Of a stretch of DNA of 64,000 nt, positions 22,666 through 24,381 are shown piece after piece; position 1 is the first letter of the stretch, and every line of letters begins with the position of its first letter. The notes beneath the pieces were generated by a model. It was not told where the DNA came from. It searched no databases and saw nothing but the letters and a program-made list of their open reading frames with translations. Origin of the DNA: an uncultured Prevotellaceae bacterium (GTDB taxonomy: Bacteria; Bacteroidota; Bacteroidia; Bacteroidales; Bacteroidaceae); contig CAMVPA010000017.1 in assembly GCA_947169245.1 (NCBI GenBank), forward strand, positions 1 through 64,000, written 5' to 3'. The position numbers and the translations under genes were made by a program.

Positions 22666-22850
22666 AGACCCACCCCTAACCCTTCCCTTTAGGGAGGGAG
22701 ATGGTAAGTGATGAAGGGTGAGGAGTGAGTGGTGAATAGTAAGAAAGATATCGAAGATATGAAGGAAAGGATAAAGAGAATACAGAGAATAACGCGACAG
22801 ATAGTCTGTCTGTTCCTCCCGCTGATAGGGGGAGGTGTGGCAGGGGTCTC
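22666..22850 (+). repeat. Copy A of duplicated ~185-bp cassette (GGGAGGG palindrome + GTGAAGGGTGAGG array + signal-peptide start)
   Basis: Near-identical to 24206-24381; contains acgcgacagatagtctgtctgttcctcccgctgatagggggagg. Confidence 0.88.
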
Positions 22851-24207
22851 CTGCAGCGACTTCCTGGAGGTCGAGGTGAAGGGGCGTGCCACGATACCCA
22901 ACTTCCTGAGCGACCCCGAGGGGCTACGCGCCGGACTCGTGGGTGCCTACAACGCCATGTACGACTACTACGACGGCGAGTTCATGAAGTATCCCGACGT
23001 GGCCGGCAACATGGTCAGCATGCGCGTCACCAGCGGCTCCATGACGAACCAGTATAACTACAGCAGCAACCAGACGCAGGAGACGGAGGCCGTGGGCCAC
23101 ATCTGGACGAACATCTACGACGCACAGTGCAACGTGAACAACATCATCCAGTATGCACCCGACGTCATCAGCGGCAATCCGGCGAAGGCCGACGATTGCC
23201 GCCGCTACTTAGGCGAGGCCTACCTGTTGCGCGCCATGTGCCACTTCGACCAGTGCCGCACCTATGCCCAGCCTTATAACTACACCGCCGACGCCGCCCA
23301 TCTCGGCGTGCCCATCCTGTGGAAGACGCCGGGCGCCGACCAGAACGTCAGCCGCTCGACGGTGAAACAGGTCTACGACGCCGTGCTGCAGGACCTTGGC
23401 CGTGCTTCCGAGATACTGACCGACGACGTGGCGCAGGACTTCCGCTACGCCTCGCTGCAGGCCGTGCGCTGCATGTACTCGCGGGTGTACCTTTATATGG
23501 AAGACTGGCAGCATGCCCTGGAGTATGCCCAGCTGGCCATCGGCTCGCAGCAGCTGGCGCAGGCTGGCGACTACCTTGACATGTACCGTGACCTGACGAA
23601 GCAGGGCGAGGCTATCTTCCGTCTCAGCGGCTACAAGATGAACGGCTCGCTGAAGTCGTTCTACGACCAGGGCTCCAGTGCCTCGCCTGCCGACACGCTG
23701 CTGTCGCTCTACGACGCCGATGACCTGCGCCTGCAGCTCGTCAGTACGACCGACGGCGGCGTGCGTTACACGACGAAGTACAGTGCGAAGGTCGTTCCCG
23801 AGAACGACGCCAAGCGCGACGACCCCTTCGTGTTCCGTCTCTCCGAGGAGTATCTGAATGCCGCTGAGGCTGCCTGGCAGCTCGGTAAGTACAGCGTGGC
23901 ACGTCAGTATATCCGTGCCATCGTTGAGCGTGCCGTCGGTAGTACGAAGGCCGATGCCGTGATGGATGCCTACAGCGATGCTACCCTCATCGATCTCATC
24001 CGTCGTGAGCGCGTCAAGGAGCTGTGCTTCGAGGGCCATAACCTCTGGGACATCACCCGCTGGAAGCAGGACCTCGTGCGCGAGGCTAATACCACCTCCA
24101 CCGTGCGCCGCATCGACTATCCCAGCGACCTCTTCGTGCTGCCCATACCGCAGACCGAGCTCTTCGCCAACGAGAACATGCAGCCGAACCCGACGGTGAA
24201 TAATTAG
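22759..24207 (+). CDS. SusD/RagB-type outer membrane lipoprotein
   Basis: Lipobox LIGGGVAGVSC; RagB/SusD body; downstream of susC. ORF start 22729 trimmed. Confidence 0.9.
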   Translation: MKERIKRIQRITRQIVCLFLPLIGGGVAGVSCSDFLEVEVKGRATIPNFLSDPEGLRAGLVGAYNAMYDYYDGEFMKYPDVAGNMVSMRVTSGSMTNQYNYSSNQTQETEAVGHIWTNIYDAQCNVNNIIQYAPDVISGNPAKADDCRRYLGEAYLLRAMCHFDQCRTYAQPYNYTADAAHLGVPILWKTPGADQNVSRSTVKQVYDAVLQDLGRASEILTDDVAQDFRYASLQAVRCMYSRVYLYMEDWQHALEYAQLAIGSQQLAQAGDYLDMYRDLTKQGEAIFRLSGYKMNGSLKSFYDQGSSASPADTLLSLYDADDLRLQLVSTTDGGVRYTTKYSAKVVPENDAKRDDPFVFRLSEEYLNAAEAAWQLGKYSVARQYIRAIVERAVGSTKADAVMDAYSDATLIDLIRRERVKELCFEGHNLWDITRWKQDLVREANTTSTVRRIDYPSDLFVLPIPQTELFANENMQPNPTVNN

Positions 24208-24381
24208 ACCCACCCCTAACCCCTCCCTTGCAGGGAGGGGAATGGTAAGTGGTGAAGGGTGAGGGGTAAGTAGTAAGAAAGATGAAGATATAAGGATATG
24301 AAAGAAAGAATAAAGAGAATAATACGACAGATAGTCTGTCTGTTCCTCCCGCTGATAGGGGGAGGCTTGGTGGGGGGCTCC
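24206..24381 (+). repeat. Copy B of duplicated cassette
   Basis: acccacccctaacccctcccttgcagggagggg...acgacagatagtctgtctgttcctcccgctgatagggggagg. Confidence 0.88.

What the first reader, a model, noticed from the sequence alone, without database searches (positions are those of the whole stretch)
22666..24381. Duplicated ~185-bp cassette supplies the intergenic leader and signal peptide of both SusD and DUF4843
22666-22850 and 24206-24381 are near-identical: CCACCCCTAACCCCTCCC-GGGAGGGG palindrome, GGTGAAGGGTGAGG array, ATGAA(G/A)GAAAG start, GACAGATAGTCTGTC palindrome, then CCTCCC-N7-GGGGGAGG, which itself encodes the hydrophobic core and lipobox (RQIVCLFLPLIGGG..-C). Two lipoproteins of unrelated families thus share a repeat-derived export signal and leader. 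Repeat-driven signal-peptide acquisition would be a notable way of making new surface lipoproteins.
Basis: partly seen in the sequence, partly recalled or inferred. Interest (0 to 1): 0.85.

Follow-up and report, generated by a model that had tools for sequence, protein, structure and literature searches.

The report
Palindromic repeat reused as lipoprotein signals
In gut and rumen Prevotella bacteria, a dispersed palindromic DNA repeat has been recruited as the membrane-export signal of many unrelated surface lipoproteins, and the window holds one such signal that now sits on two neighbouring genes.

Summary
The duplication is real: 22666-22860 and 24206-24390 are 83-87% identical. It starts at the upstream gene's stop codon and ends two codons past the lipobox cysteine. 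In its own genome the full cassette occurs only there. The downstream protein is not DUF4843.

The wider idea holds up. The leader palindrome and the signal-peptide core are inverted copies of one dispersed G/C-rich palindromic repeat. In 300 same-genus genomes 39 of 51 matches encode signal-peptide cores, always in one frame (LPLxGGGWVG..C), on SusD, fasciclin, FKBP, Mx1-peptidase, TIG, BACON and SusE/F proteins. A signal-peptide profile hits 34 of 399 same-genus genomes and no other of the 295 remaining Bacteroidales. In GTDB the exact DNA is a signal peptide in 15/15 Prevotella hits and 1/68 elsewhere. Codon identity shows DNA homology.

Here the SusD leader and signal peptide was probably copied onto its neighbour. 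Relatives show intermediate and empty states, and neighbours also share non-repeat signal peptides. Heptamer arrays supply signal peptides too. Precedents: Rickettsia palindromic elements and Yersinia YPO1552. Function is predicted, not assayed.

The parts
22666..22701 (+). Leader copy 1: forward palindromic repeat arm AGACCCACCCCTAACCCTTCCC-TTTA-GGGAGGGAG, directly after the SusC stop (22663-22665)
   Evidence: same arm in the same place in the leaders of most same-genus loci with this signal peptide
22703..22749 (+). Degenerate 7-base array (GGTAAGT/GATGAAG/GGTGAGG...) between arm and start codon
   Evidence: sequence; family D7
22759..24207 (+). SusD/RagB lipoprotein (482 aa from ATG 22759)
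   Evidence: Pfam PF07980 E 7e-21 and PF14322 E 3e-19
22804..22848 (+). Inverted repeat arm encoding the h-region and c-region (..VCLFLPLIGGGVAGV) of the SusD signal peptide; lipobox Cys codon 22852-22854
   Evidence: reverse complement of the leader-arm family
24206..24241 (+). Leader copy 2: forward palindromic repeat arm AGACCCACCCCTAACCCCTCCC-TTGCA-GGGAGGGG; its first bases are part of the SusD stop codon TAG
24243..24277 (+). Degenerate 7-base array GGTAAGTGGTGAAGGGTGAGGGGTAAGTAGTAAG
   Evidence: family D7
24298..24795 (+). Small lipoprotein (165 aa), no Pfam/NCBIfam family; Prevotella-centred homologues
24334..24378 (+). Inverted repeat arm encoding the signal-peptide core (..VCLFLPLIGGGLVGG) of the small lipoprotein; lipobox Cys codon 24382-24384
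46265..46365 (.). Related element in the window: inverted pair of the same arms (101 bp) lying in frame inside a 1032-aa gene on the minus strand

Best explanation
The cassette is an inverted pair of a dispersed palindromic repeat (REP-doublet or MITE-like), flanking a short AT-rich spacer that carries the start codon. The upstream arm lies in the leader. The downstream, inverted arm is read in one fixed frame and encodes the hydrophobic core and lipobox approach (LPLxGGGWVGVSC) of a lipoprotein signal peptide. This version was domesticated in Prevotella and spread, by recombination of leader plus signal peptide, to many unrelated lipoprotein genes, mostly in SusC/SusD-type loci. In the window the SusD copy was most likely duplicated onto the next gene, replacing an ordinary signal peptide. 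The conserved leader arm at the 5' side and the lipobox region at the 3' side could act as recombination anchors. Shown: DNA homology, fixed frame and position, many families, the sharp copy boundaries, and related loci in intermediate and empty states. Inferred: the copying mechanism and its direction, and that the peptides work in export and lipidation.
For: Sharp boundaries at the stop codon and at Cys+2. 39 of 51 pattern matches in 29 of 300 genomes sit at this position and frame, with zero matches to the reversed control pattern. Families: SusD, Fasciclin, FKBP_C, Peptidase_Mx1, TIG, BACON, SusE/F. A GGGAGGGG-type leader arm lies upstream of the start in 37/39, of which one looks spurious; a stricter full-arm test finds 30/39. 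Codons outside the search pattern are near invariant against background: ATA 16/17 (bg 0.12), TAT 35/36 (0.41), CTC 32/35 (0.29), GTC 35/37 (0.32). In G129, three neighbouring genes with no mature-protein similarity share leader+SP DNA at 83-88% identity. GTDB exact matches: Prevotella 15/15 in signal peptides, others 1/68. Loci: G051/G297/G151 SusD carry the repeat signal peptide while the neighbour has only the leader arm and an ordinary one; G006 has no element and a short gap between the genes. P0001, 98% identical to the small lipoprotein, carries the SusD version of the N-terminus, as recombination between the copies would give. On the orthologue tree the GGG type needs 6 changes, at least 3 forced. 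The lipobox rule is met in 40/41.
Against: No expression, export or lipidation data. The search pattern was derived from the signal-peptide form, so 39/51 does not estimate how often the whole repeat family is used this way; most arms in G000 are intergenic or inside genes. No recombinase was tied to the element: Y1-transposase hits in G000 are below cut-off and no arm flanks them. P0001 could be an assembly chimera. The direction SusD to neighbour rests on relatives of about 65% identity, and closer SusD relatives have varied signal peptides. Neighbour sharing without the palindrome shows the repeat is not required for copying.
Confidence: 0.75

Rival explanations
1. Each repeat-type signal peptide arose by an independent insertion of the mobile inverted pair at a gene start, rather than by recombinational copying of one domesticated cassette.
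For: The arm family is mobile-looking: in G000 inverted pairs of 101 or 113 bp lie in frame inside unrelated genes, and one pair supplies the apparent N-terminus of an Hsp15-like gene. Several n-regions occur with the same core (MKQYIYSKTKELLRF.., MYKLKNIRKRLLHTM.., MKRKSFQHKWSV..). A second frame of the canonical arm (LGGVGGG) is also used in G314.
Against: Most cassettes share the start-to-core distance (79 or 91 bases) and n-region similarity, the core is one special variant of the repeat, and the window pair and the G129 set are plainly copies of each other.
Confidence: 0.2
2. Ordinary local duplication or gene conversion of a normal signal peptide; the G-rich palindromes are incidental.
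For: Only two full copies in this genome, and neighbours share ordinary signal peptides as well.
Against: The same DNA core recurs on at least seven Pfam families in 34 of 399 genomes with near-fixed codons, and it is the reverse complement of the leader repeat.
Confidence: 0.07
3. Protein-level convergence on a good lipoprotein signal peptide.
For: Signal peptides are short and hydrophobic; PS00013-type rules are met.
Against: Rare codons are fixed (ATA 16/17; GGG 4.6% in background but nearly fixed in the core, although GGG lies inside the search pattern), the leader arm is conserved in non-coding DNA, and no hit occurs in other Bacteroidales genomes.
Confidence: 0.02
4. The inverted pair is kept as an RNA or DNA regulatory structure (translation control or inversion switch), and the signal-peptide coding is a by-product.
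For: Arms flank the start codon, and the leader arm also occurs before genes without the repeat signal peptide.
Against: Folding energies of the two leader+SP RNAs are not unusual (z -1.07 and -0.88), and arms fold locally rather than across the start codon. No opposite-orientation allele was seen.
Confidence: 0.06

Closest known systems
Rickettsia palindromic elements (RPEs; protein-coding palindromes, Ogata et al. 2000, summarised in PMC10969869)
   Same: Short palindromic mobile repeats found in frame inside unrelated protein genes.
   Different: RPEs add internal segments to proteins; here the repeat forms the export signal and lipobox at the N-terminus of lipoproteins, always in one frame, in another phylum. 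No sequence comparison was made.
Yersinia palindromic sequence (YAPL/RU-2) fusion YPO1552 (Delihas, PMC2229807)
   Same: A predicted signal peptide partly formed by a MITE-like repeat.
   Different: One conserved hypothetical gene there; here dozens of proteins of known families across a genus, with copying between neighbouring genes.
REPINs/BIMEs (inverted REP doublets mobilised by RAYT transposases; PMC2817692, PMC3733652)
   Same: Short palindromic repeats arranged as inverted pairs with a short spacer, dispersed in the genome.
   Different: No RAYT gene could be linked to the arms, and the pairs also lie inside genes and serve as signal peptides.

Membership tests
REPIN/BIME | Inverted pairs of a short palindromic repeat, many copies per genome | tested here: met
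   48 exact arms listed in G000, many in +/- pairs with arm-to-arm lengths 101 or 113 bp
REPIN/BIME | Associated RAYT (Y1 HUH) transposase flanked by the repeat | tested here: not met
   G000 has two Y1_Tnp matches below cut-off; none of the inspected Y1 loci in G000 has an arm in its flanks; three other cassette genomes (G139, G092, G150) have no match
MITE | Terminal inverted repeats | tested here: met
   Outer ends ACCCACC...GGTGGGT in pairs
MITE | Target site duplication and a parental transposon | not tested
   No systematic empty-site comparison; no parental element found
Protein-coding palindromic repeats (RPE-like) | In-frame presence inside conserved genes | tested here: met
   GcvT, Mfd, DnaE, QueE, GH43-like and PEP-synthase-like frames stay open through the pairs; PDB alignments show net extra residues at the GcvT and Mfd sites, and no PDB homologue aligns across the DnaE site
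Lipoprotein signal peptide (SPase II type) | K/R in the n-region, hydrophobic stretch, lipobox-Cys | tested here: met
   PS00013-type rule met in 40 of 41, including both window proteins
Lipoprotein signal peptide (SPase II type) | Processing and lipidation in vivo | not testable with these tools
   Needs labelling or mass spectrometry
SusD/RagB | PF07980 and PF14322 above cut-off | tested here: met
   75.5 and 70.5 bits
   No Pfam match even at E 1, no NCBIfam match

The most novel reading that the evidence does not exclude
In Prevotella, dispersed repeats are a standing source of new signal peptides. At least two unrelated repeat families, the G/C-rich palindrome in two or more frames and (TTTATCA)n heptamer arrays, have repeatedly become the hydrophobic core of exported proteins, and leader plus signal peptide is then copied between neighbouring or same-genome lipoprotein genes. 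The export signal thus evolves as a swappable module separate from the mature protein.
Probability: 0.55. Interest if true: 0.78.

Novelty: new variant of a known kind. Interest (0 to 1): 0.66.

Why it matters
Signal peptides are usually treated as inherited with their protein. Here they appear as modules built from repeat DNA and copied between genes, while the residues after the lipobox cysteine stay with the mature protein. That offers a concrete, testable route for how surface lipoprotein genes of glycan-use loci renew or gain export signals, and a natural test of how loosely signal peptides are constrained. It also warns that signal-peptide similarity between Prevotella lipoproteins does not mean homology of the proteins.

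Tried and rejected
RNA folding gave no unusual structure. Convergence was rejected on codon evidence. RAYT linkage was tested and not found. In the 7 locus pairs where both signal peptides could be extracted automatically, only the window pair shares its signal peptide (permutation p 0.08), so neighbour sharing is occasional there. In the wider set of 4 genomes most adjacent lipoprotein pairs are also unrelated (median score 18, as for non-adjacent), but the 3 top scores overall are adjacent pairs. Same-genome sharing beyond neighbours is suggestive only: 34 of 78 against a permutation mean of 20.8 and maximum of 35. Literature searches found no prior description of this case in the held library.

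Full report
What is there. The window's SusC-SusD-small-lipoprotein junctions carry two copies of a leader plus signal peptide, 22666-22860 and 24206-24390. Homology begins at AGACCC directly after or within the upstream stop codon and ends two codons past the lipobox cysteine. The mature proteins are unrelated (no blastp hit). The first is SusD/RagB. The second has no family in Pfam or NCBIfam but has many Prevotella-centred homologues; the DUF4843 label is wrong.

Own genome. The held genome (2.93 Mb, 85 contigs, 75% complete) contains only these two full copies. The leader arm is a dispersed repeat: 48 exact matches to ACCCNCCCCCNNCCCCTCCC are listed, many in inverted pairs. Among the regions fetched, pairs of 99, 101 or 113 bp and tight 44-bp palindromes lie in open frames of conserved genes (GcvT, Mfd, DnaE, QueE, GH43-like, a PEP-synthase-like gene at window 46265-46365) or between genes. 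So the family behaves like inverted REP doublets or MITEs and, as in Rickettsia palindromic elements, can be translated.

The signal-peptide core is the same repeat inverted. A tblastn-style search with the 165-aa protein in 300 same-genus genomes returned hits to residues 1-31 alone, on SusD and other proteins. A DNA pattern for the core gave 51 matches in 29 genomes and none for the reversed control. Of these, 39 are signal peptides in the same frame, with Met 15-21 residues upstream and a lipobox downstream. A GGGAGGGG-type arm lies in the leader of 37/39 (one looks spurious); a stricter full-arm test finds 30/39. The 39 proteins include SusD-like_3 (20), Fasciclin (10), FKBP_C (3), Peptidase_Mx1, TIG, BACON and SusE/SusF. 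A 33-position profile of the signal peptide hits 66 places in 34 of 399 same-genus genomes, one of them a 34-aa frame, and nothing in 295 other Bacteroidales genomes. In GTDB representatives the exact pattern also occurs in Devosia, Sphingomonadales, Planctomycetes, Nitrospinota and others, but only 1 of 68 there passes the signal-peptide test, against 15 of 15 in Prevotella, including the complete genome of Prevotella communis E15-14; six of the 15 come from one MAG.

DNA descent, not convergence. At positions outside the search pattern codons are nearly fixed: Ile ATA 16/17 (background 0.12), Tyr TAT 35/36 (0.41), Leu CTC 32/35 (0.29), Val GTC 35/37 (0.32), Ser TCC 21/31 (0.16). In genome G129 three adjacent genes with no mature-protein similarity share leader+SP DNA at 83-88% identity.

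How the window case arose. In G006 the SusD and small-lipoprotein genes are separated by a few bases and both have ordinary signal peptides. In G051, G297 and G151 both junctions carry the leader arm, SusD has the repeat signal peptide, and the neighbour has an ordinary one. In the window both have it. The simplest reading is that leader plus signal peptide was copied from SusD to its neighbour. P0001, a 98% identical small lipoprotein, carries the SusD version of the n-region, as expected if the two copies recombine, though an assembly chimera is possible. On the orthologue tree the GGG type needs 6 changes (at least 3 forced), so this signal peptide has been gained or lost repeatedly. Orthologues of the two proteins share several other signal-peptide types too, such as VFYCLLTPVSCLL, ALCMACC and KMGRTAFL (top scores 79-154 against a shuffled maximum of 47). 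Adjacent lipoprotein genes in G314 share leader+SP DNA of other kinds. Copying is therefore a wider habit, of which the palindrome is one substrate.

A second repeat does the same. In G314 and G000, (TTTATCA)n-type heptamer arrays form the hydrophobic core (LSFIICHLSFS) at the N-terminus of 18 of 30 inspected matches, in both lipoproteins and Ala-x-Ala type exported proteins; two of the 18 are overlapping matches in one gene. In G314 the canonical palindrome arm is used in another frame (LGGVGGG).

What is not shown. Export and lipidation are predicted only: the PS00013-type rule is met by 40 of 41. No mobilising enzyme was tied to the arms. The direction of copying is inferred. The pattern-based fraction is conditioned on the signal-peptide variant of the repeat. 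Most adjacent lipoprotein pairs do not share signal peptides.

Relation to known systems. It works like a domesticated protein-coding palindrome (Rickettsia palindromic elements; PMC10969869), with the Yersinia YPO1552 fusion as a single-gene precedent for a signal peptide partly formed by a MITE-like element (PMC2229807). It resembles REPINs in being inverted palindrome pairs, but a RAYT association was not met.

Noticed in passing
window 46265-46365; L081, L082, L084, L085, L087, L089, L091, L092, L093: Inverted pairs or tight palindromes of the same repeat lie in frame inside conserved genes (PEP-synthase-like, beta-galactosidase-like, GH43-like, GcvT, QueE, DnaE, Mfd), encoding peptides like PTPSPSRTGGE...LPSRSGGVGGG. 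Pair lengths 101 and 113 bp.
   Followed up: partly
window 2170-2297: A decayed inverted pair of the same repeat inside an open frame.
   Followed up: no
L005 (G000 contig 27, about 8940-9090): An inverted pair appears to supply the start codon and N-terminal extension of an Hsp15/S4-like cytosolic protein (MQMEKNHSGHVHSTVLPAREGAGEGLARLDKWLW).
   Followed up: no
L303, L305, L356, L360, L362 (G000); many G314 loci: Heptamer (TTTATCA)n arrays serve as signal-peptide cores (LSFIICHLSFS) of lipoproteins and other exported proteins; the same arrays also occur away from N-termini, often followed by AGCGYAGCGC.
   Followed up: partly
window 26381-30760 (M16 peptidase / metallophosphoesterase protein): Linkers that look repeat-encoded: PPSTLRPQPSSFNNPSSTFNL and QPSTLHPQPSTLNL, plus GGRLNVEGGKLNF.
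   Followed up: no
L095 (G000 contig 11, 62691-62860): Four tandem copies (about 50 bp each) of the palindromic arm between genes.
   Followed up: no
GTDB hits L125-L203 outside Prevotella: The same GGGGGAGG-N-TGGGTGGGGG palindrome, sometimes in inverted pairs, occurs in Devosia, Sphingomonadales, Planctomycetes, Deltaproteobacteria, Nitrospinota and Armatimonadetes; shared origin or convergence is open.
   Followed up: partly
L116 (G000 contig 9, about 54.7 kb) and L120 (contig 38, about 24.3 kb): Two divergent Y1/HUH transposase-like genes (MPDHVHL / MPDHLHG motifs), one with internal peptide repeats (NAAEVHGNAAEVHRDSRT).
   Followed up: partly
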